Part shown: in pieces, positions 465 to 33,645 of the stretch
Numbering within the stretch: the first letter of the stretch is position 1
How the letters are laid out: each line of letters starts with the position of its first letter
IMG/VR virus record: IMGVR_UViG_3300021131_000029
Location: 1-34,343 of that record
Strand: one strand, 5' to 3'
Source: a virus
DNA: 34,343 bases
Position numbers and translations under genes: made by a program
Notes under the pieces: model-generated
What the model saw: the letters and a program-made list of their open reading frames with translations, nothing else
Database searches by the model: none
What the model was told of the DNA's origin: nothing

Positions 465-1661
465 ATGACTCAGCCAATCGACCTTATTAGCAGAGCCTTA
501 AAAGATATTGGCGCTTTAGAAGCTGGTGAAGTTCCAACAACTGATGCGACTCAAGATGCTTTTGATATGCTTAATGACCTTATTGACCAATGGTCAAATG
601 AAAACATGATGGTATTTAATACTACCGAAATCATATTTCCATTAATTTCAGGTCAAATTCAATACACTATTGGTCCTACTCCAAGTACGGCAAATTATAT
701 TGGTGCGGCTATTACAGGAACAATTTCAGGAAAAATTTTAACAGTTGCTGGAATTAATAGCGGAGCAGTAGCATTAGGGCAAACCCTTAAAGGCGCTGGA
801 ATTGCTTCAGGAACTAAAATTGTTCAGTTTTTAACTGGCGCTGGCGGTAATGTAAATGAAGTAGGAACTTATCAACTTAATGTTTCAGCCACTACAGTTA
901 CTCCTGCTTTTACAGCATATATATCAGGGACAACCCTTAATGTTACTGCCATAGCTTCAGGATATTTAGGTGTAGGTGCTGTTATTAGTGGCACAGGAGT
1001 AACGGCAGGAACGACTATAACGGCTGTTTTAAGCGCTTCAGGTGGAGTTGGTACATACACAGTTAGCGCAAGCCAAACAGTTGGTAGCGAGGCTATGACA
1101 GCTACTGTAACGCCTATTCCTATTATTCTTTATTATCAAAAACCTTTAACGATAGATTCAGCTTATGTGCGTATTAATACCAATAGTAATGGTCAGCCTA
1201 TACTTAATGGCGGTTTGGATTATCAAGTAGGCATTTTAGCTCTTGAAAATTACAATCAAATTGGCTTAAAAACGCTTAATGGCCCTTGGCCTAAAGCTCT
1301 TTATTACAACCCTAATGCTGACCAAGGCAATCTTTTTGTATGGCCTAATCCTGCACAAGGCGAAATGCATTTATTTGCTAATACTATTTTTAGCAGATAT
1401 GAAACTTTATATGACACCATTGTTTTGCCACAAGGCTATTCAATGGCGCTTAGATGGTGTTTGGCAGAACGTCTAATGCCTATGTATGGCAAAGTCAATC
1501 CAACTCAAATTGAAATGATTAATTCTTATGCTTCACAATCTAAAGCTACTTTAAAGCGTACTAACATGAAACCAGTTGCATCGGCTTCTTATCCTACACA
1601 AATGCTTGTTGGTAGAGCTAAAGATGCTGGCTGGATTCTTAACGGTGGATTTACAGGATAA
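465..1661 (+). CDS. head-completion / tail accessory factor, P22 gp4-like
   Basis: The N-terminus ([20 protein letters not shown], then [10 protein letters not shown]) and the C-terminal half ([27 protein letters not shown]) match the gp4 family, which binds below the portal ring and closes the packaged head. At 398 residues it is more than twice P22 gp4 (about 166). The excess lies at residues 84-213, where two copies of an ISGTTLNVT-type beta module are inserted between the YTIGP strand and the [11 protein letters not shown] strand. A small GGA ribosome site precedes the ATG, and the stop overlaps the next start by one base (TAATG). Confidence 0.88.
714..1103 (+). repeat. two ISGTTL-type beta modules inserted in the gp4-like protein
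   Basis: Residues 84-148 and 150-213 of the gp4-like protein are two diverged copies of a module of about 60 residues. Its pattern is (I)[23 protein letters not shown], then a Gly-rich turn, then GTYTVS.SQTVGSE.M. The second copy is closest to that pattern and the first is more diverged ([10 protein letters not shown]...GTYQLNVS). Two more copies occur in the next gene. They interrupt the core fold, so they probably project from the tail hub. Confidence 0.8.
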
Positions 1662-3631
1662 TGGCTGATTTTGGTTTCGTAGGCGCTTCTTATGTAGCGC
1701 CATCAATTTATCAAGATGACCAAGAATGTATTAATTGGCGCTGTGAAATTGACCCTACAAAACAACAAGGCGAAAGAGGTATTGTTGCTCTTTATCCAAC
1801 GCCAGGCCTTACTTTATTAACAACTTTTCCTAATAAACAGCAAGTTAGAGGTTTAAGGGCTATATCTTCAGGTGGCTCACAACTTATAGCCGTTTGTGGA
1901 AATTATGTTTATGCTGTTTCTTATAATTTTCAACCATCTATTATTGGTCAATTATTATCTACAACTGGTCCTGTAAGTATTTCTGATAATGGAATTTATG
2001 TTTACATTGTTGATGGAAATAATCGTTATTCATGGTTAATAGATTATCCTGATACCGTTTATATTAATGCCTATATTTCAGGCACTACCTTAAATGTAAC
2101 TTCTATTGAAAATGGCACTATTAGTGTAGGTTCACAAATTTTTGGTTTAGGAGTTCTTCCTGGAACAGTTATTACATCAGGCTCAGGTTTATTGTGGACT
2201 GTTAATAAAACTCAAAATACTCAACCTCAAAGACTTAATACTGACCCTGCTAATGGTATTTTTACTGGCTCTATTTCAGGAACTACTTTAACTGTTAGTG
2301 CTGTTTCCTATGGTAGTCTTCATTTAGGTACAACAATAATTGGCACAGGAATACCAACTAATGTAATTATTACAGCGCTAGGAACTGGCACAGGCGGTAC
2401 AGGAACTTATACATTAAGTAATTCTTTAAGCATTGGTTCTGAAACAATGTATGCCCAACAATTTAGCACTTTACCAAGCTCAGATGGCGCTTTTACTGGC
2501 GGTGGCGTAGTAGATGTTAACGACAACTATTTTATTTATACTAGACCTAATTCACAACAATTTGCTATTTCTGATGTATTAAGCCCTATTACTCAGCCTT
2601 TAAGTTTTGCTAGTAAGTTTACGAGTCCTGATAATCTAGTATCATTAATAGCAGATAATGGACAACTCTATCTTTTAGGCGAAAAATCGTCTGAAGTTTG
2701 GGTAGACCAAGGCACTTTTCCTGTAGCTTATCAGCGTATTCCTGGAAGTTCTAATCAGCAAGGTATTATTGCGCCATTTTCAGTAGCAAGGGTAGGTAAT
2801 TTCTTTTGCTATGTTTCGCAAAATATTCGTGGTCAAAATCAGGTCGTTTTGATGAACGGTTATATTCCACAACGAGTTTCAACCCATGCTGTTGAGCAAA
2901 GCCTTTTAGACCAATATACGGCTGATGCTATTGCTTATACATACCAGCTTGAAGGCCATGAAGTATATGTAGTTACATTCCCCACTATTGATATTACTTG
3001 GGCATATGACTTAACTACTAATTTATGGCATAAATGGCTTTGGACTGATGGAGATAATAATTACCATCGTCATCGTAGCAATTGTGCCGCAGTTTTTCAA
3101 AATATTGTAGTTGTTGGTGATTGGGAAAATGGCAATTTATACCAATTAGACCAATCTGCTTATACCGATGCTGGTAGCGAAATTCGTAGATTAAGACGAG
3201 CTCCACATATTCTTTCAGATTTACAAAGACAATATTTTGAAGAATTACAAATTCAATTTCAACCTGGCGTTGGCGCAGGTGGTTTTTCTAGAGATAGAAA
3301 TATCTATTTAGGTTCGCCTTACTATATTCCTGCTACAGGTTCTTTGGTTATAGGTTATCAAGATATTGATGTTTTAGGTAATCCAGGACAAATTACGCCT
3401 ACTGATGTATTTTATAATCCTAAAGCTATGCTTCGTTGGTCAAATGATGGCGGCTCTACTTGGAGCAAAGAATATTGGCAAAACATAGGTCAGCAAGGCA
3501 AATATACTAATCGAGCTATTTGGAGGCGTTTAGGCTGGTCTAGGGACAAAATTTTTGAAGTTGTGGTTACTGACCCAATTAAAGCAGTTATTGTTTCAGC
3601 TAATCTTAAAGCAAGCGGAGCAGATAATTAA
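1661..3631 (+). CDS. packaged-DNA stabilisation protein, P22 gp10-like
   Basis: This 656-residue protein begins FGFVGASYVAPS followed by QECINWRCEID and LYPTPGL. It continues with WVDQGTFPVAYQRIPGSSNQ and, later, DLTTNLWHKW. These are hallmarks of the gp10/Phage_stabilise family (PF11134), beta-propeller-like hub proteins that plug the gp4 adaptor ring. P22 gp10 is about 472 residues. The extra length includes two ISGTTL modules at residues 136-190 and 202-266, near the N-terminal third. Order after the gp4-like gene is as in P22. Confidence 0.88.
   Translation: MADFGFVGASYVAPSIYQDDQECINWRCEIDPTKQQGERGIVALYPTPGLTLLTTFPNKQQVRGLRAISSGGSQLIAVCGNYVYAVSYNFQPSIIGQLLSTTGPVSISDNGIYVYIVDGNNRYSWLIDYPDTVYINAYISGTTLNVTSIENGTISVGSQIFGLGVLPGTVITSGSGLLWTVNKTQNTQPQRLNTDPANGIFTGSISGTTLTVSAVSYGSLHLGTTIIGTGIPTNVIITALGTGTGGTGTYTLSNSLSIGSETMYAQQFSTLPSSDGAFTGGGVVDVNDNYFIYTRPNSQQFAISDVLSPITQPLSFASKFTSPDNLVSLIADNGQLYLLGEKSSEVWVDQGTFPVAYQRIPGSSNQQGIIAPFSVARVGNFFCYVSQNIRGQNQVVLMNGYIPQRVSTHAVEQSLLDQYTADAIAYTYQLEGHEVYVVTFPTIDITWAYDLTTNLWHKWLWTDGDNNYHRHRSNCAAVFQNIVVVGDWENGNLYQLDQSAYTDAGSEIRRLRRAPHILSDLQRQYFEELQIQFQPGVGAGGFSRDRNIYLGSPYYIPATGSLVIGYQDIDVLGNPGQITPTDVFYNPKAMLRWSNDGGSTWSKEYWQNIGQQGKYTNRAIWRRLGWSRDKIFEVVVTDPIKAVIVSANLKASGADN
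2066..2458 (+). repeat. two further ISGTTL-type beta modules, in the gp10-like protein
   Basis: Residues 136-190 ([13 protein letters not shown]...) and 202-266 (GSISGTTLTVSAV...GTGTYTLSNSLSIGSETM) repeat the module seen in the upstream gp4-like protein. The first copy seems to lose its second half (it ends in a Gln/Asn-rich stretch), whereas the second is complete. The reading frame is intact throughout, so these are stable protein insertions and not mobile DNA. Confidence 0.78.
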
Positions 3632-3867
3632 TGGCTAATCAAATTTATGCGGGTAAAACATTAAACCCTATTCCTCAAACTGATTTTTTAGATGAAACTA
3701 CTAAAAGACCTACTAGAGCTTGGACACAGTTTTTTCTTGGAATTTTAAATAATACTTCAGCCACTACAGCTACGGCTGGAAGCGCTACTTTGCCTGCTGC
3801 CCCTGCTGGATTTATGAATGTTTATGTTGACGGAAAAGCATATAAAGTGCCTTATTACAATGTATGA
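3631..3867 (+). CDS. small tail-cluster protein, position of P22 gene 26
   Basis: A 78-residue protein whose start overlaps the gp10-like stop by one base. The N-terminus (TLNPIPQTDFLDETTKRPTRAWTQFF) looks like a docking segment. An Ala/Thr-rich linker leads to a C-terminal PAAPAGFMNVYVDGKAYKVP strand pair, an ending shared by several small phage tail proteins. In P22 this slot holds the tail-needle gene 26 (233 residues), but this protein is far too short to be a full needle. Its exact role is unknown. Confidence 0.6.
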   Translation: MANQIYAGKTLNPIPQTDFLDETTKRPTRAWTQFFLGILNNTSATTATAGSATLPAAPAGFMNVYVDGKAYKVPYYNV

Positions 3868-4319
3868 ATGAGGTAATAAATAACATTCCCACTAGGGAAC
3901 AAATTGAGAGATTACAAGCCGAAATGGTTAAACTACCTCAAGATGAGGTAATAACTGAGCATTATTTTTCTGAAGGTATGTATTGCAGAAAGGTTTTTAG
4001 AAAAGCTGGAACATTAATAGTAGGCAAAGTTCATAAAAAACCTCACTTTTTTTTATGTGCAAAAGGTGAAATAATAGCTTGGTCGGAAAAAGGAATGAGA
4101 AACTTGAAAGCTGGCGATGTAATTGAAAGTTTGCCAGGTACTAAAAGGGTAACTTTAGCGGTTGAGGATTCAATTGGAATTACTTTTCATAAAACCGATA
4201 AAACGGATTTGAATGAAATTGAACAAGAATTAGTTGAATATGATGAAACAGCCTTATTTGATTCTGATAACAAATTGAAAGAAATTATGATTGAAAGTCA
4301 TAAAAGGAGTTTAATATGA
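3864..4319 (+). CDS. cupin-like protein within the tail gene cluster
   Basis: This 151-residue protein starts at an ATGA overlap. After a helical N-terminus it shows a single conserved beta-barrel pattern. First comes GMYCRKVFRKAGTLIVGKVHKKPHFFLCAKGEI; within it the strand GTLIVGKVHKKPHFFL has paired histidines. Then come MRNLKAGDVIESLPGTKR and a closing strand. This fits the cupin fold, where His/Glu residues bind a metal. A charged helical tail of about 40 residues follows. Enzymatic function cannot be assigned. Cupin-like genes occur in other phage tail operons, where a structural or chaperone role is possible. Confidence 0.65.
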   Translation: MNEVINNIPTREQIERLQAEMVKLPQDEVITEHYFSEGMYCRKVFRKAGTLIVGKVHKKPHFFLCAKGEIIAWSEKGMRNLKAGDVIESLPGTKRVTLAVEDSIGITFHKTDKTDLNEIEQELVEYDETALFDSDNKLKEIMIESHKRSLI

Positions 4320-5329
4320 GTTTTGCTTCCGCTATCGTTAGTGCGACTACTGGCGCATTTTTAGCACCTATTGCTGGACAAATTATTGGTTCTGTTATTG
4401 GAGGCAATACTGTTGCTCAAGGGCAAACACAAGGTGCCCAACAACAAGTTCAAGGTTTGCAAAATGCACAAAATGCGTTAAATACTGGTTTTACTAACGC
4501 ACAACCTTATTTAAACAATGCTTATACAAGCGGTCAAGGTTATTTAACTAATTCTTATAACACAGCTAATAATGCAATTACTGGCAATTATGGTAATGCT
4601 ATTGCTGGTTTTGCTCCATATCAACAAGCTGGTGCATCAGCCGCTAATGCTTTAAATAATTTAATTACAAGTGGATACGCCACACATCAATTTAATACTC
4701 AAGATTTATATAATGGTCTTTCACCTAATTATAATTTTCAATTACAACAAGGGCAAAACGCTACAAATGCGGCAGCCAATGCTGGTGGAGGCATGATTGG
4801 CGGTAATGCTTTGCAAGGATTACAAAATTATACTCAAAATTATGCTGCAAATGCGTATCAAAACGCATTTACTAATTATCAAACTCAAAGAAATGATATT
4901 TTTGGCAATATTCAGCCTGTAGCTAATATGGGTTTAAGCGCTACTCAAAGTGTAGGCAATTTATATGCTGGACAAGGAAACGCATTAGCTGGTTTGGCAA
5001 CTAATTATGGAAACAGTATGACTGGTTTAGGAACAAGTTATGGTAGTTCAATGGCTAATTTAAACACTTCGCTTGCTAATTCTTTAGCTGGTAATTATGG
5101 TCAACAAGGAACCGCATTAGGTTCTGGCACTATTGGTAGTGCAAATGCTTTAGGCGGTATTGCTAGTGGAGTTGGCGCTACTACAGGCGCATTAATTGGC
5201 AATGTAGCAGGAAATTATCTTAAAAACCCATATGCAAGTATGGGAATAAATGGTAACGATAGCACAGGATATACATATGCTAATCCTGCTAATGTAGGGC
5301 CTCCTGCACCAATTACAACTGGAGAATAA
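4316..5329 (+). CDS. DNA ejection/transfer protein (gp7-position, p32-like)
   Basis: The 337-residue protein opens with a glycine-rich hydrophobic segment (residues about 10-30, PIAGQIIGSVIGG) that could insert in a membrane. It then continues as a Gln/Asn/Ala/Gly-rich, mostly helical sequence with YNFQLQQGQNATNAAANAGG and NALQGLQNYTQNYAANAYQN. Those two motifs are typical of phage proteins annotated as DNA transfer or ejection proteins. Its place after the tail-completion genes matches P22 genes 7-20-16, whose products leave the capsid ahead of the DNA. It overlaps the cupin gene by four bases. Confidence 0.75.
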   Translation: MSFASAIVSATTGAFLAPIAGQIIGSVIGGNTVAQGQTQGAQQQVQGLQNAQNALNTGFTNAQPYLNNAYTSGQGYLTNSYNTANNAITGNYGNAIAGFAPYQQAGASAANALNNLITSGYATHQFNTQDLYNGLSPNYNFQLQQGQNATNAAANAGGGMIGGNALQGLQNYTQNYAANAYQNAFTNYQTQRNDIFGNIQPVANMGLSATQSVGNLYAGQGNALAGLATNYGNSMTGLGTSYGSSMANLNTSLANSLAGNYGQQGTALGSGTIGSANALGGIASGVGATTGALIGNVAGNYLKNPYASMGINGNDSTGYTYANPANVGPPAPITTGE

Positions 5330-6692: not shown

Positions 6693-9056
6693 ATGTCAGA
6701 CTTACTATATGATGCAATTCTTGGAAATCCTTCTGTGGCTCAAAAAGCTCCATCTGAAGGTGTTCAACCTATCAATGATGAAGATTTAAAACATCCTAAT
6801 GTTATTAAAGGATTGAAATATATAAATGCTTATGAAGGTAAACCAAAAGCTAATCAAATGTTTGGTTATAGAGAATTTAACGATTTATCAAAACATCCTA
6901 ATATAAAAATTCCTTTTACTGATAAAGGCGATACAACTACTGCCGCAGGAACTTATCAAATTATTGCTCCTACTTGGGAAGAACAAGCAAAAAAACAAGG
7001 ATTAAAAGACTTTAGCCCTGAAAATCAAGATAGAGCCGCAGTTGGAATTATGCGTGATATAGGCGCTTTAGATGCTTTCAAAGAAGGTAATTTTGATAAA
7101 GCTAAACAATTGTTAGGAACTAAATGGGCTGGTATTCCAGGTTCTACTATTGGTAAATCTACTGGTCAAATTCCAAAATTAAATGCTGAACATGAAGCAA
7201 TTTTGCCTTCTGGTGATATTTTATATAACGCTATTTTAGGTAATGATATAAAAACTGGTGTAACTAAAACTGCAACTGTTAATAATTTACAGCCTGATGT
7301 TCCTTTGCCAGTTCAAAATGTTCCTAAAAAAGAAGAACAAATGAATTGGTTTCAAAGAAATATGAACGCTCCTGAAGCTTCTAAAAAACTTCAAGGTGCA
7401 GGAGAAGCAATAGCGGCTATTGCAACTAGTCCTTTAGTTGCTGGCGCAGGCATGGTTAAAGGGCTTGTTCAAAGTTTGCCTGAAATTGCTGGAGGTAAAG
7501 CGCCACAAATAGCTGAAAAAATTGCTTCAGATTTTCAAAAAGAACACGGTTATTCTCCAACATCAGAAAAAGGTAAAGAATATTTACAAAGTATTGGCGA
7601 AACATTTAAAGGACTTGTTGAAACTGCAACTGGTTCAAGCACTTCTTTGCCACCAATTATTCCTGAATTAGTTGGAATTACTGCTGGAAGAACTGCTGTT
7701 GGACAAATGGAAAATCAATTTGCTAAAGCAAAAGCTGGTCCTTTACCATCTGCTAAAGTGTATAACTTTCCAGCAGGGCAAGAAAAACAACCTATGGTTG
7801 GAGTTGGTGCGGCTGAAGCTGGAATTGAAAAAACAAGAATTGAAAGAGCTAAAGAACTTCCAATTCCTATTGATTTATCTAAAGACCAAGCTACTCGCAA
7901 TCCTGCTGATGTTCGTTTTGCTCGTGAAACTGCTAAAGACCCAGTATTGGGCGGTGCATTACAAATTAAATATGCAGAAGATAATGCAAAAATTCAAGCT
8001 AATTTAGATAAATTTGTTTATGATACTGGCGCTGAATTTAGCAGTACGGCACCTGGAGAATTGGCACAAATGCTTGTAAACACAATAGAGCCAAATAAAA
8101 AAGCTCGTTATGCTCAAATAGAAACTGCCTATAACAATGCTCGTGAAGCTGGTCATATGAATGAGCTTATTGATATTAATAAATTAGAAAACTATGTAGA
8201 AAAACATAAAGCAGAAGCTATTAATGCGCCTGTTTTATCTTCTGTAGAACAAAAACTTAAATCATTAACTCAAGGTGGAAAAATTGGTCAAATACCAATT
8301 AATGACCTTGAAGAACTTAGAAAAATGACAGGTACTTTAGCGCAAAGTTCTGGCCCTAATGCTCATTATGGAAAAGAAGTTATTAAATTAATGGATGCAA
8401 TTACAGAAGGAAAAGGTGGCGAACTTTATAAAAATGCTCGTGCTTTAAATACTTCATATATGAAAGAATTTGAAAATACTCCTGCTTTAAAACAAATTAC
8501 AGCTATGAAATCAGGCGGTCAAGAACGGGTTGTTGCTATGGAAAAACTTGTTGATAAAGCAATGTTGCAAAGTCCTGGTGACCAAGTTAAACAATTATTT
8601 AGTTCTCTTGAAAGAATGGGGCCAGAAGGTCAAAAAATGACTCAAGAATTGCGTGGCGCTGTTGCTCAAAGAATTAAAGATGAGGCTACAAAAGGTGTTG
8701 GTCGTGATATTAATGGGAAACCTTATGTTTCAACTCAATCATTAAATAAAATTATTACTGATTTAGATAAAAGTGGAAAATTAGAATTTCTTTTTGGAAA
8801 AAAAGGCGCTGAACATTACAGAACTTTAAATGAAGTTACTAAAGATTTACAAACTGTTCCTGTGGGCACAACTAATCCTTCAGGTACTGCATCTAGTATA
8901 TTGGCTGCATTAGGCGAAATGGGAGCGCAAACAGTTTTAACTGGAGTTCCAGTTCCAGTTGTTGCTATTGGAAAACATCTTTATGGAAAACATAAAACAA
9001 AACAACAACTTAATAAAATAAATGAATTTGTAAATTACAGCAAGGAAAATAAATAA
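6693..9056 (+). CDS. DNA ejection protein with lambda R-like transglycosylase domain (GH104)
   Basis: In this 787-residue protein, residues about 35-150 align with lambda endolysin R. Residue E48 sits in AYEGK, the slot of the catalytic Glu. GYREFNDLSKHP matches R's FTDYSDHP region, and AAGTYQIIAPTW and LKDFSPENQDRAAV are near-identical in pattern to R. The domain should cut peptidoglycan glycan strands by lytic transglycosylation during DNA entry. The remaining 640 residues are helical, with a hydrophobic Gly/Ala segment near 235-265, consistent with a P22 gp16-type role. LLYDAILGN at residues 4-12 recurs as ILYNAILGN at 176-184, flanking the domain. Confidence 0.85.
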   Translation: MSDLLYDAILGNPSVAQKAPSEGVQPINDEDLKHPNVIKGLKYINAYEGKPKANQMFGYREFNDLSKHPNIKIPFTDKGDTTTAAGTYQIIAPTWEEQAKKQGLKDFSPENQDRAAVGIMRDIGALDAFKEGNFDKAKQLLGTKWAGIPGSTIGKSTGQIPKLNAEHEAILPSGDILYNAILGNDIKTGVTKTATVNNLQPDVPLPVQNVPKKEEQMNWFQRNMNAPEASKKLQGAGEAIAAIATSPLVAGAGMVKGLVQSLPEIAGGKAPQIAEKIASDFQKEHGYSPTSEKGKEYLQSIGETFKGLVETATGSSTSLPPIIPELVGITAGRTAVGQMENQFAKAKAGPLPSAKVYNFPAGQEKQPMVGVGAAEAGIEKTRIERAKELPIPIDLSKDQATRNPADVRFARETAKDPVLGGALQIKYAEDNAKIQANLDKFVYDTGAEFSSTAPGELAQMLVNTIEPNKKARYAQIETAYNNAREAGHMNELIDINKLENYVEKHKAEAINAPVLSSVEQKLKSLTQGGKIGQIPINDLEELRKMTGTLAQSSGPNAHYGKEVIKLMDAITEGKGGELYKNARALNTSYMKEFENTPALKQITAMKSGGQERVVAMEKLVDKAMLQSPGDQVKQLFSSLERMGPEGQKMTQELRGAVAQRIKDEATKGVGRDINGKPYVSTQSLNKIITDLDKSGKLEFLFGKKGAEHYRTLNEVTKDLQTVPVGTTNPSGTASSILAALGEMGAQTVLTGVPVPVVAIGKHLYGKHKTKQQLNKINEFVNYSKENK

Positions 9057-30886: not shown

Positions 30887-31219
30887 ATGGCTTACGATTC
30901 AGCTTTTAGCCCTTTTGGGCCAACTTACCTAGTAAGCACTTCTGCTGTCCAAGTTAAAGCAACAAGCAATTTTTATCCTACTTCTTATAGAATTTACAAC
31001 ATAACAAGTGGAATTGTTCGCTTTGCTTGGGCTCCACAAGAGCCAGGTGATGCAACTGTTACTCCTGTGGCTACAACTCCTACTTCAACTGGAACGCTTT
31101 ATGTGATGTCTATTCCTGCTAATACTGTGCAAGTATTTAGCGGAATTCCACCTAATGCTTGGTTTATTTCAAATACAGCTTCTAGCCTTGAAATTACTCC
31201 AGGTGAAGGAAAACTTTAA
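30887..31219 (+). CDS. small beta-rich structural protein preceding the tail fibre
   Basis: 110 residues (TYLVSTSAVQVKATSNFYPT; YRIYNITSGIVRFAWAPQEP; LEITPGEGKL) with several strands and no helix-rich part. It overlaps the tail-fibre start by one base. A head or tail-attachment subunit is plausible from location; homology not recognised. Confidence 0.6.
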   Translation: MAYDSAFSPFGPTYLVSTSAVQVKATSNFYPTSYRIYNITSGIVRFAWAPQEPGDATVTPVATTPTSTGTLYVMSIPANTVQVFSGIPPNAWFISNTASSLEITPGEGKL

Positions 31220-33645
31220 TGGCAAGTCCTGCTAATTCTATTGTTCAAAACTTATTGCCTGTTCAGGCTTATTTCAATGTAGATAAAAGTTTTAATACAT
31301 TTATAGGCCAAGGCATACCGTTTTATGCGACTACTAATCCTATTCAATCAGGGTTAACCATTACTAATAGCACCATAAATAGCACTACGATTGGGGCTTT
31401 AGTTCCATCTACGGCTGTATTTAGTAGTGGTCAAATAAATGCAACACCAGTAGGCTCAACAGACATAACTAATAAGTTATATGTTGATTCAGTAGCGGCA
31501 GGACTTAGTTGGAAAGCACCAGTAGCAGTAGCCACAACAGCAAATATTACGCTGTCAGGTTTACAAACTATTGATACTTATACAACGCTTGCAGGCGATA
31601 GAGTTTTGGTTAAAAACCAAACAAATGCGGCATTAAATGGTCTTTACATAGCATCTAGTGGTACATGGGCTTATGCACCAGACGGTAATACTTGGAATCA
31701 ATATGTAGGCGCTATTACTTTTGTAGAGTATGGTTCACAAAAAAATGGCGCTTTTTATTGTTCTGCACAACCAGGCGGAACTCTAGGTACTACAGCATTA
31801 AATTGGGCAAGTTTTAGCGTATCAGCTACTTACACAGCAGGTACAGGGTTAACCCTAACTGGCTATGTATTTAGCATTACAAATACAGGTGTTTCAGCTA
31901 ATACTTATGGTTCAGCAAGCGCTGTTCCTGTAATTGCAGTAAATGCTCAAGGGCAAATTACTTCAGCTACGACTACGACTATTGCTATTGCCAATACTCA
32001 AGTTTCGGGTCTAGGCACAATGTCTACCCAAAATGCTAATGGTGTTGCCATTACAGGTGGCACTATTGATGGAACTACAATAGGTGGCACAACAGCAGGC
32101 GCAGTAACAGCAACTACATTTACAGGCGCTGGTACAGGTCTAACAGGCACAGCTTCAAGTCTTTCTATTGGCGGTACGGCAGCAAAAGCAACAAATATTG
32201 CTGGAGGTGCGGCTGGCTCTGTGCCTTACCAATCAGGCGCTAATACAACAGTATTTTTAGCTGCTGGAACTAATGGTCAAGTATTAACTTTGGCATCGGG
32301 AGTTCCATCTTGGGCAACTCCTACAACAGGAACGGTTACTTCTGTTAGCGGTACAGGTACAGTAAATGGAATCACTTTAACTGGTACAGTTACTTCTAGC
32401 GGAAGTATTACATTAGGGGGCACATTAGGTAGCATTGCCAATAGCCAATTAACTAATAGCTCGATTACTTTTGGCGCAACTGCGGCGGCTTTGGGTACAA
32501 CAGTAAGTGGCTTTAATGCGGTAACAATTGGTGCTACAACAGCATCAACAGGCGCATTTACTTATTTATCTACAAGTAGTTCAACAAACACTACACCAGT
32601 ATTAAGTTTTAATGGCTCAAATACTAATTTTGCATTAGGCGCTTCAATTTCAGGTTCTTATTTGCAAGCAATTATGCAAAATAAGAGCGCAACTGCTGGA
32701 GCTTCTACCAATTATGTATTAAGTAACGATTCAGGCACAGATTCAAGCTATTACGGTGAATTTGGTATGAATTCATCAGTATTTAGCGCATCTACGCCTG
32801 CTGATTTTTTCTCAATTAATAACGGTGTTTACTTTTCAGGGCATGACGGTGATATAACGGTAGGTTCAGGCAATGGTTATAAGACCTATTTTGCTTGGGG
32901 AAGCACAGGCCAATCTGCCCATGTAATTAATGCTACTGGTGCTATTGGTCTAAATACTAATTTAGGTACAACTCCCGCAGGAAGTGGAACTACTAATTTT
33001 GGCACATCAGGCCAAGTTCTAACTTCGGCTGGTTCTGCGGCAACTCCTACTTGGACTACGATTGCTACAGGCTTAACAATTACTGATGACACTACAACTA
33101 ATGCGGCTCGTTATTTAACGATTACAAGCGCTACAAGTGGCACAATTACTGCGGCTAATACTAGCTCTACAAAACTAAGTTATAACCCATCTACAGGACT
33201 TTTGAGCTTTATTTCGGCTACTATGGCTGGTACTTCTAGTGGATATGGATTTAAAACGCCTAATATTGCTGAACCTACGACTGTTTCGGCAACTGCGGCA
33301 ACAGGCACAATTAACTATGATGTAACTACGCAATCAGTCCTTTATTACACAAGTAATGCTTCTGCAAACTGGACTGTTAACTTTAGAGGTTCAAGCGGAA
33401 CTTCATTAAATACTTTGATGGCTGTTAATGACACCATAGCAGTAACATTTATGGTAACTCAAGGTTCTACAGCTTATTACAATAACGCTTACACAATTGA
33501 TGGCACTACTGTAACTCCTAAATGGGCTGGTGGTACTGCTCCAACAAGCGGAAATGCTAGTGGTATTGATGTTTATAACTATGTTATTACTAAAACAGCA
33601 TCTGCAACTTATACAGTATTAGCCTCACAAACTCAGTTTAAATAA
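31219..33645 (+). CDS. tail fibre / receptor-binding protein
   Basis: 808 residues, Thr/Ser/Gly-rich beta-repeat architecture (TSVSGTGTVNGITLTGTVT; GAGTGLTGTASSLSIGGTAA). The N-terminal part has DITNKLYVDSVAAGLSWKAP, a recurring segment of phage fibre proteins, and AGDRVLVKNQTNAALNGLYI. The C-terminal part is Gly/Thr-rich and may carry the receptor tip. It probably forms a trimeric fibre. The one-base overlap with the glycine-rich protein suggests the two are made together. Confidence 0.8.
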   Translation: MASPANSIVQNLLPVQAYFNVDKSFNTFIGQGIPFYATTNPIQSGLTITNSTINSTTIGALVPSTAVFSSGQINATPVGSTDITNKLYVDSVAAGLSWKAPVAVATTANITLSGLQTIDTYTTLAGDRVLVKNQTNAALNGLYIASSGTWAYAPDGNTWNQYVGAITFVEYGSQKNGAFYCSAQPGGTLGTTALNWASFSVSATYTAGTGLTLTGYVFSITNTGVSANTYGSASAVPVIAVNAQGQITSATTTTIAIANTQVSGLGTMSTQNANGVAITGGTIDGTTIGGTTAGAVTATTFTGAGTGLTGTASSLSIGGTAAKATNIAGGAAGSVPYQSGANTTVFLAAGTNGQVLTLASGVPSWATPTTGTVTSVSGTGTVNGITLTGTVTSSGSITLGGTLGSIANSQLTNSSITFGATAAALGTTVSGFNAVTIGATTASTGAFTYLSTSSSTNTTPVLSFNGSNTNFALGASISGSYLQAIMQNKSATAGASTNYVLSNDSGTDSSYYGEFGMNSSVFSASTPADFFSINNGVYFSGHDGDITVGSGNGYKTYFAWGSTGQSAHVINATGAIGLNTNLGTTPAGSGTTNFGTSGQVLTSAGSAATPTWTTIATGLTITDDTTTNAARYLTITSATSGTITAANTSSTKLSYNPSTGLLSFISATMAGTSSGYGFKTPNIAEPTTVSATAATGTINYDVTTQSVLYYTSNASANWTVNFRGSSGTSLNTLMAVNDTIAVTFMVTQGSTAYYNNAYTIDGTTVTPKWAGGTAPTSGNASGIDVYNYVITKTASATYTVLASQTQFK

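What the first reader, a model, noticed from the sequence alone, without database searches (positions are those of the whole stretch)
714..2458. Same beta module inserted four times into two adjacent tail-completion proteins
The gp4-like and gp10-like proteins both exceed their P22 relatives by the length of two copies of an ISGTTL...GTYTVS.SQTVGSE module of about 60 residues. Copies sit at 84-148 and 150-213 of gp4-like, and 136-190 and 202-266 of gp10-like. Shared modules in two neighbouring hub proteins imply domain exchange between genes or a common recruited decoration, possibly binding host surface sugars or extending the tail neck.
Basis: partly seen in the sequence, partly recalled or inferred. 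Interest (0 to 1): 0.62.

Follow-up and report, generated by a model that had tools for sequence, protein, structure and literature searches.

The report
Shared decoration domain on phage neck
Two neighbouring tail-neck proteins of a freshwater P22-like phage each carry two copies of a small, almost uncharged beta-barrel domain that phages plug into many unrelated particle proteins, apparently as an optional surface decoration, and that has no entry in the main curated protein-family libraries.

Summary
Four copies of a ~60-residue module sit at gp4-like 83-150 and 149-212 and gp10-like 135-193 and 201-264. A profile built from the gp10 copies alone scores 78.7 bits on the gp4 insert, against a best of 3.7 in 5,000 shuffles. 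AlphaFold gives all four the same strand pattern at high confidence; the cores superpose on P22 gp4 and gp10. In gp4 the modules lie between helices 2 and 3 of the adaptor bundle, where phage DEV's adaptor has an outward-facing lectin-like domain. Relatives show empty sites (Rhodoferax phage P26218), one copy, or two; gp4 and gp10 copy numbers combine freely (2+2, 1+2, 2+0, 1+0). Copies cluster by position, not by genome, so there is no recent gp4-gp10 exchange. The same module occurs in tail sheath, neck terminator, baseplate, lambda-D-type decoration, cement, minor head and tail-fibre proteins, often in adjacent genes. It has no Pfam or NCBIfam model, and its motif appears in no paper searched. 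Most likely it is an autonomous, largely dispensable virion-surface decoration; host-surface contact is the leading but unproven role. Its composition (3% charged residues, almost no Trp or His) argues against a classical sugar-binding module.

The parts
465..1661 (+). gp4-like tail adaptor, 398 aa, holding modules 1 and 2
   Evidence: AF2 model; core superposes on P22 gp4 8u10_m Z 15.2, 1.9 A over 111 residues
711..914 (+). module copy 1 (gp4 residues 83-150); all close relatives have a module at this site
   Evidence: module HMM 3e-21; counts; AF2 pLDDT about 76-92 by blocks
909..1100 (+). module copy 2 (gp4 residues 149-212); 79 of 137 close relatives have a second module
   Evidence: module HMM 4e-23; counts; AF2 pLDDT 91-97; Z 7.6 and 35% identity to 8eci_1
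1661..3631 (+). gp10-like hub (head closure Hc3, beta-propeller), 656 aa, holding modules 3 and 4
   Evidence: phrog_578 2.9e-84; P22 gp10 8eap_D Z 35.8, 3.4 A over 399 residues
2063..2239 (+). module copy 3 (gp10 residues 135-193), the shorter variant
   Evidence: module HMM 3e-17; AF2 pLDDT 90-95
2261..2452 (+). module copy 4 (gp10 residues 201-264)
   Evidence: module HMM 2e-21; AF2 pLDDT 89-96
3864..4319 (+). downstream short tail-fibre-like gene, 151 aa, without the module
   Evidence: phrog_12032 1.2e-34; its family follows gp10 in phages with every module combination

Best explanation
The four segments are copies of one autonomous small beta-barrel domain, a promiscuous virion-surface decoration module. 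In this P22-like podophage it is inserted in pairs into the tail adaptor (gp4-like) and the hub (gp10-like). SHOWN: four homologous copies with one predicted strand pattern; insertion into cores that otherwise match P22 gp4 and gp10; empty and partly filled sites in relatives; inheritance by position; gp4 and gp10 copy numbers that occur in all combinations; purifying selection; the same module in many other virion proteins of unrelated tailed phages. INFERRED: if the oligomeric states are as in P22 (12 adaptors, 6 hubs), up to 36 modules would ring the outside of the neck and hub. They would be dispensable for assembly and act by weak, multivalent, non-charged contacts with the host envelope or the surrounding polysaccharide, and/or by shielding the neck.
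For: Homology. Fold: the same strand pattern in all four copies of two separate models, modules at high pLDDT. Foldseek against BFVD matches the gp4 model to a 656-aa viral protein named 'P22 Gp10, DNA-stabilising' at E 3.1e-11 over 186 columns. Insertion ladder: P26218 gp4 none, PBR31 gp4 a look-alike segment at the same site, ctn9Y15 and cta1H496 gp4 one copy and gp10 none, window two plus two. Site: between helices H26-45 and H325-337 of gp4, the place of the outward-facing lectin-like domain of DEV gp83 (PMC10925440); T7 gp11 also adds a beta-barrel fibre dock to its bundle (PMC6702177). Dispensability: combinations (gp4, gp10) 2+2 in 37, 1+2 in 35, 2+0 in 14, 1+0 in 7 and 1+1 in 1 distinct loci. 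Constraint: dN/dS 0.24-0.25 in modules against 0.14-0.16 in cores. Generality: in 71 other host proteins, matches to baseplate wedge, tail sheath, minor head, head closure Hc2, neck terminator, lambda-D decoration, structural cement and tail fibre families. Closest solved chain: 8eci_1 of Arthrobacter phage Bridgette, 35% identity, 2.1 A over 65 residues; Bridgette carries dimeric capsid cement proteins (PMC13033339).
Against: No binding data exist. Only 3% of module residues are charged, Trp is 0.2% and His 0.1%, which is unlike lectins and carbohydrate-binding modules. Coordinates of the models could not be inspected, so outward exposure of the gp10 copies is assumed. Profile searches of the PDB did not recover 8eci by sequence, so that relation rests on structure alone. 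At least one gp4 module is present in all 137 close relatives, so that copy may have become needed.
Confidence: 0.72

Rival explanations
1. Structural cement or spacer: the modules contact each other or the neighbouring ring and stabilise the neck against internal pressure, like capsid cement proteins.
For: Closest solved structure is a 124-residue chain of Bridgette, a phage with capsid cement proteins; the module also sits in Phage_cement and lambda-D families; composition is inert and uncharged.
Against: gp10 modules are absent in 21 of 94 distinct loci, with one or with two gp4 modules, so no matched gp4-gp10 contact is required. The module also sits in baseplate and tail-fibre proteins where capsid pressure plays no part.
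Confidence: 0.25
2. Fibre dock: paired modules on adaptor and hub form the seat of a tail fibre or spike, as the T7 gp11 and gp12 fibre docks do.
For: Both adaptor and hub carry an added beta-barrel, as in T7, where the fibre sits between the two docks (PMC6702177); a fibre-like gene follows gp10.
Against: The same downstream fibre-gene family follows gp10 with 2+2, 1+2, 2+0 and 1+0 modules; T7 docks are different jelly-roll domains.
Confidence: 0.12
3. Ongoing domain exchange between gp4 and gp10 within a genome.
For: The two genes are adjacent and carry homologous modules.
Against: Copies cluster by position across phages; DNA identity of 42-54% with at most 11 shared consecutive bases in the window; the gp10 states need only two changes on the core tree.
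Confidence: 0.04

Closest known systems
Carbohydrate-binding modules in neck, major tail and Dit proteins of 936 lactococcal siphophages (PMC6669499)
   Same: Optional modules carried by several virion proteins and combined differently from phage to phage; one neck module and one tail module bound host cells in that study.
   Different: Different host type and different modules; here all copies are one family, nearly free of Trp and charge, and no binding is shown.
Lectin-like insertion of phage DEV adaptor gp83 (PMC10925440)
   Same: Domain inserted between helices H2 and H3 of a P22-gp4-type adaptor, facing outward.
   Different: Single 101-residue insertion in the adaptor; in the passages read it is not described as a repeated module shared with the hub.
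Fibre docks of T7 gp11 and gp12 (PMC6702177)
   Same: Adaptor and nozzle each carry an added beta-barrel at the outside of the neck.
   Different: Different jelly-roll barrels that bind the fibre; not a transferable module family.
Capsid chain 8eci_1 of Arthrobacter phage Bridgette
   Same: Similar fold, 2.1 A over 65 residues with 35% identity.
   Different: Separate 124-residue chain, probably the capsid cement protein (inferred), not an insertion in neck proteins.
PHROG families 21413 and 38233
   Same: Both contain the module (E 1.9e-20 and 1.7e-16 with gp4).
   Different: They are whole-protein families (unknown function; tail fibre); the module itself is not delimited.
Ig-like domains of tailed-phage structural proteins (own knowledge)
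   Same: Promiscuous domains added to many surface virion proteins.
   Different: No Pfam Ig or Big family is hit; after 8eci_1 the nearest solved folds are elongation-factor-type barrels at Z 6.5-7.3.

Membership tests
P22 gp4-type tail adaptor | four-helix bundle superposing on P22 gp4 | tested here: met
   8u10_m Z 15.2, 1.9 A over 111 residues
P22 gp4-type tail adaptor | lies next to gp10 in a genome with P22-type terminase, portal, scaffold and coat genes | tested here: met
   P22_portal 1.7e-180, P22_CoatProtein 3.1e-32, scaffold phrog_8865, terminase phrog_3717
P22 gp10-type hub | sequence and fold match to gp10 / head closure Hc3 | tested here: met
   phrog_578 2.9e-84; 8eap_D Z 35.8; 7eeq E 2.7e-17
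Module family of PHROG 21413 / 38233 | significant profile match over the module length | tested here: met
Named Pfam or NCBIfam domain family | match above the curated cut-off | tested here: not met
   Pfam best is FeoA E 0.016, 15.7 bits against cut-off 23; NCBIfam none for the consensus
Carbohydrate-binding module | binding of a glycan | not testable with these tools
   no assay possible
Carbohydrate-binding module | aromatic or charged ligand-binding residues | tested here: inconclusive
   Trp 0.2%, His 0.1%, charged 3.0%, about 3 aromatic residues per module
T7-type fibre dock | seat of the tail fibre between adaptor and hub | tested here: inconclusive
   module combinations do not track the downstream fibre gene; no complex modelled
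Bridgette cement protein | shared fold with significant sequence relation | tested here: inconclusive
   structure and 35% identity, but profile searches do not reach it

The most novel reading that the evidence does not exclude
An undescribed, nearly charge-free beta-barrel is a general-purpose exchangeable surface domain of tailed-phage particles. It would be plugged into neck, sheath, baseplate, decoration and fibre proteins across morphotypes (possibly also giant-virus collagen-like proteins) and do one common job on all of them, such as weak adhesion to host or environmental polysaccharide, or particle shielding.
Probability: 0.4. Interest if true: 0.68.

Novelty: new variant of a known kind. 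Interest (0 to 1): 0.5.

Why it matters
It sits in neighbouring neck and tail proteins (adaptor and hub; head protein, neck terminator and sheath). Phages with empty sites and different copy numbers make its role directly testable. A defined family would also clean up 'tail fibre' annotations that rest on the module alone.

Tried and rejected
tblastn of the module alone against the phage collection gave nothing, probably because its low-complexity filter hides the query; HMM searches of fetched loci were used instead. PDB sequence and profile searches with the module gave only chance hits. The 32-row module alignment was too variable for a collection scan, so a consensus was used. Low-complexity chance similarity was rejected by shuffling. 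Recent gp4-gp10 gene conversion was rejected by position clustering. A strictly paired gp4-gp10 dock was weakened by the free combination of copy numbers. The weak Cu-oxidase match to gp4 (E 0.013, below cut-off) is treated as chance. No library paper contains the module's consensus strings; that covers the papers held only and does not prove the module is undescribed.

Full report
OBSERVATION. The gp4-like gene (465-1661, 398 aa) and gp10-like gene (1661-3631, 656 aa) are adjacent and overlap by one base. BLASTP between the two proteins gives E 3.5e-22 over a stretch that covers the inserts. An iterated module HMM places copies at gp4 83-150 and 149-212 and gp10 135-193 and 201-264, and tblastn finds only these four in the record. 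A profile built from the two gp10 copies alone gives 78.7 bits on the gp4 insert; the best of 5,000 shuffles of that insert gives 3.7. The similarity is therefore not a low-complexity artefact.

THE CORES. The genome is P22-like: P22_portal 1.7e-180 and P22_CoatProtein 3.1e-32, plus scaffold and terminase families. The gp4 AlphaFold model (mean pLDDT 79.5) superposes on P22 gp4 (8u10_m, Z 15.2, 1.9 A over 111 residues). The gp10 model (mean pLDDT 78.8) superposes on P22 gp10 (8eap_D, Z 35.8, 3.4 A over 399 residues). By sequence gp10 also matches Pam1 and Pan3 hub proteins (7eeq, 9vyg).

THE MODULE FOLD. Most of the module stretches have pLDDT of about 84-97 in both models. Each shows a long first strand, a short strand and two further strands: gp4 78-99, 107-109, 118-122, 134-143 and 148-165, 173-176, 184-192, 195-213; gp10 133-151, 159-161, 170-175, 178-186 and 199-218, 225-227, 236-240, 248-266. 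Foldseek against BFVD matches the gp4 model to a 656-residue viral protein named 'P22 Gp10, DNA-stabilising' (E 3.1e-11, 186 columns, 27% identity). Among solved structures, gp4 145-216 best matches chain 1 of 8eci (Arthrobacter phage Bridgette; Z 7.6, 2.1 A over 65 residues, 35% identity), then elongation-factor-type barrels at Z 6.5-7.3 with 10-13% identity. Z under 8 alone may mean only a common arrangement; the 35% identity is what sets 8eci apart. Bridgette has dimeric capsid cement proteins (PMC13033339); that chain 1 is this protein is inferred. Profile searches of PDB sequences do not reach it.

WHERE IT IS INSERTED. In gp4 the modules fall between helices 26-45 and 325-337 of the adaptor bundle. 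Phage DEV's adaptor carries an outward-facing lectin-like insertion between H2 and H3 (PMC10925440). T7 gp11 carries its fibre dock as an extra beta-barrel beside the bundle, a domain absent from P22 and Sf6, and T7 gp12 carries a second dock (PMC6702177). In gp10 the modules sit inside the propeller region, between strands 121-126 and 284-287; which face they point to could not be determined.

PRESENCE AND ABSENCE. Of 137 gp4 relatives in viral contigs 58 have one module and 79 have two; gp10 relatives carry from none to three. These counts include some cut-off ORFs and repeated contigs. Named phages give a ladder: P26218 gp4 (234 aa) has none; PBR31 gp4 has a look-alike segment (GTFLGTTV...SGAGIPAGATV) at the same site that the HMM does not reach; ctn9Y15 and cta1H496 have one gp4 copy and no gp10 copies; the window has two and two. 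Among 94 distinct loci with both genes the combinations (gp4, gp10) are 2+2 in 37, 1+2 in 35, 2+0 in 14, 1+0 in 7 and 1+1 in 1. On core trees the gp10 states need two changes and the gp4 states three. The trees are quick FastTree ones, and the sampling leans towards the window.

HISTORY. Nearest neighbours below 85% identity in other phages are copies at the same position in 145/149, 56/58, 114/117 and 115/116 cases. Within-genome identity between positions (0.42-0.49) is no higher than between genomes (0.41-0.50). In the window the copies share 42-54% DNA identity and at most 11 consecutive bases. The copies are thus old residents of their positions, not recent transfers between gp4 and gp10. 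dN/dS is 0.24-0.25 in modules and 0.14-0.16 in cores: constrained, but more loosely than the core.

GENERALITY. Of the module-bearing ORFs found there, 65 viral ones are gp4, 55 are gp10 and 19 are others; all 58 in bacterial contigs are others. Seventy-one such other proteins match, besides the module's own PHROGs, baseplate wedge, tail sheath, minor head, head closure Hc2 and tail fibre families, and in Pfam a neck terminator, Baseplate_J, Phage_cement and lambda decoration protein D. The adjacent-gene pattern recurs in probable contractile-tail prophages: head protein (phrog_1912), neck terminator (phrog_1876) and tail sheath (phrog_205) in L242 and L227, and the last two in L228. The lambda-D match in L257 spans the module, so it is an internal insertion there too. 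BFVD adds an HK97 major capsid protein and giant-virus collagen-like proteins. Pfam and NCBIfam hold no model for it, and no library paper contains the consensus strings.

COMPOSITION. Over 538 copies, Gly, Thr and Ser make up 49%; Lys, Arg, Asp and Glu together 3.0%; Trp 0.2%; His 0.1%. This argues against a classical lectin site and for weak neutral contacts, a spacer or a shield.

CONCLUSION. The best reading is a transferable, autonomous surface module recruited several times and retained, with host-surface contact as the leading but unproven role. Cement or spacer and fibre dock are the main rivals. It works like the optional decoration modules of 936 phages (PMC6669499) but was not shown to belong to any carbohydrate-binding family.

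Noticed in passing
L133:9308-10747; similar 479-aa ORFs in L192 (3092-4531) and, cut off, L161 (7074-8207): In L133, whose gp10 lacks modules, the gene right after gp10 carries one module at residues 302-365, a third neighbouring gene with the same domain; L192 and L161 hold a similar ORF.
   Followed up: partly
L227, L228, L242, L260: In bacterial contigs (probable contractile-tail prophages) the module is inserted into neighbouring head, neck-terminator and tail-sheath genes, an independent parallel to the gp4/gp10 case.
   Followed up: yes
gp10 relatives such as L022, L037, L049 and L053: Longer gp10 proteins (709-835 aa) have a further weak, half-length module-like match after the pair, and variable inserts elsewhere.
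   Followed up: no
L070, L071, L072: gp4 is about 80% identical to the window's with two modules, but gp10 is a distant type without modules, suggesting whole-gene gp10 replacement.
   Followed up: partly
window 31219-33645: An 808-aa gene near the end of the record matches head-decoration PHROG 2647 at residues 75-258 and PHROG 5906 at its C-terminus.
   Followed up: no
window 6693-9056: A 787-aa protein with an endolysin/metallo-endopeptidase-like stretch at residues 36-164, downstream of a DNA-ejection-like gene (4316-5329).
   Followed up: no
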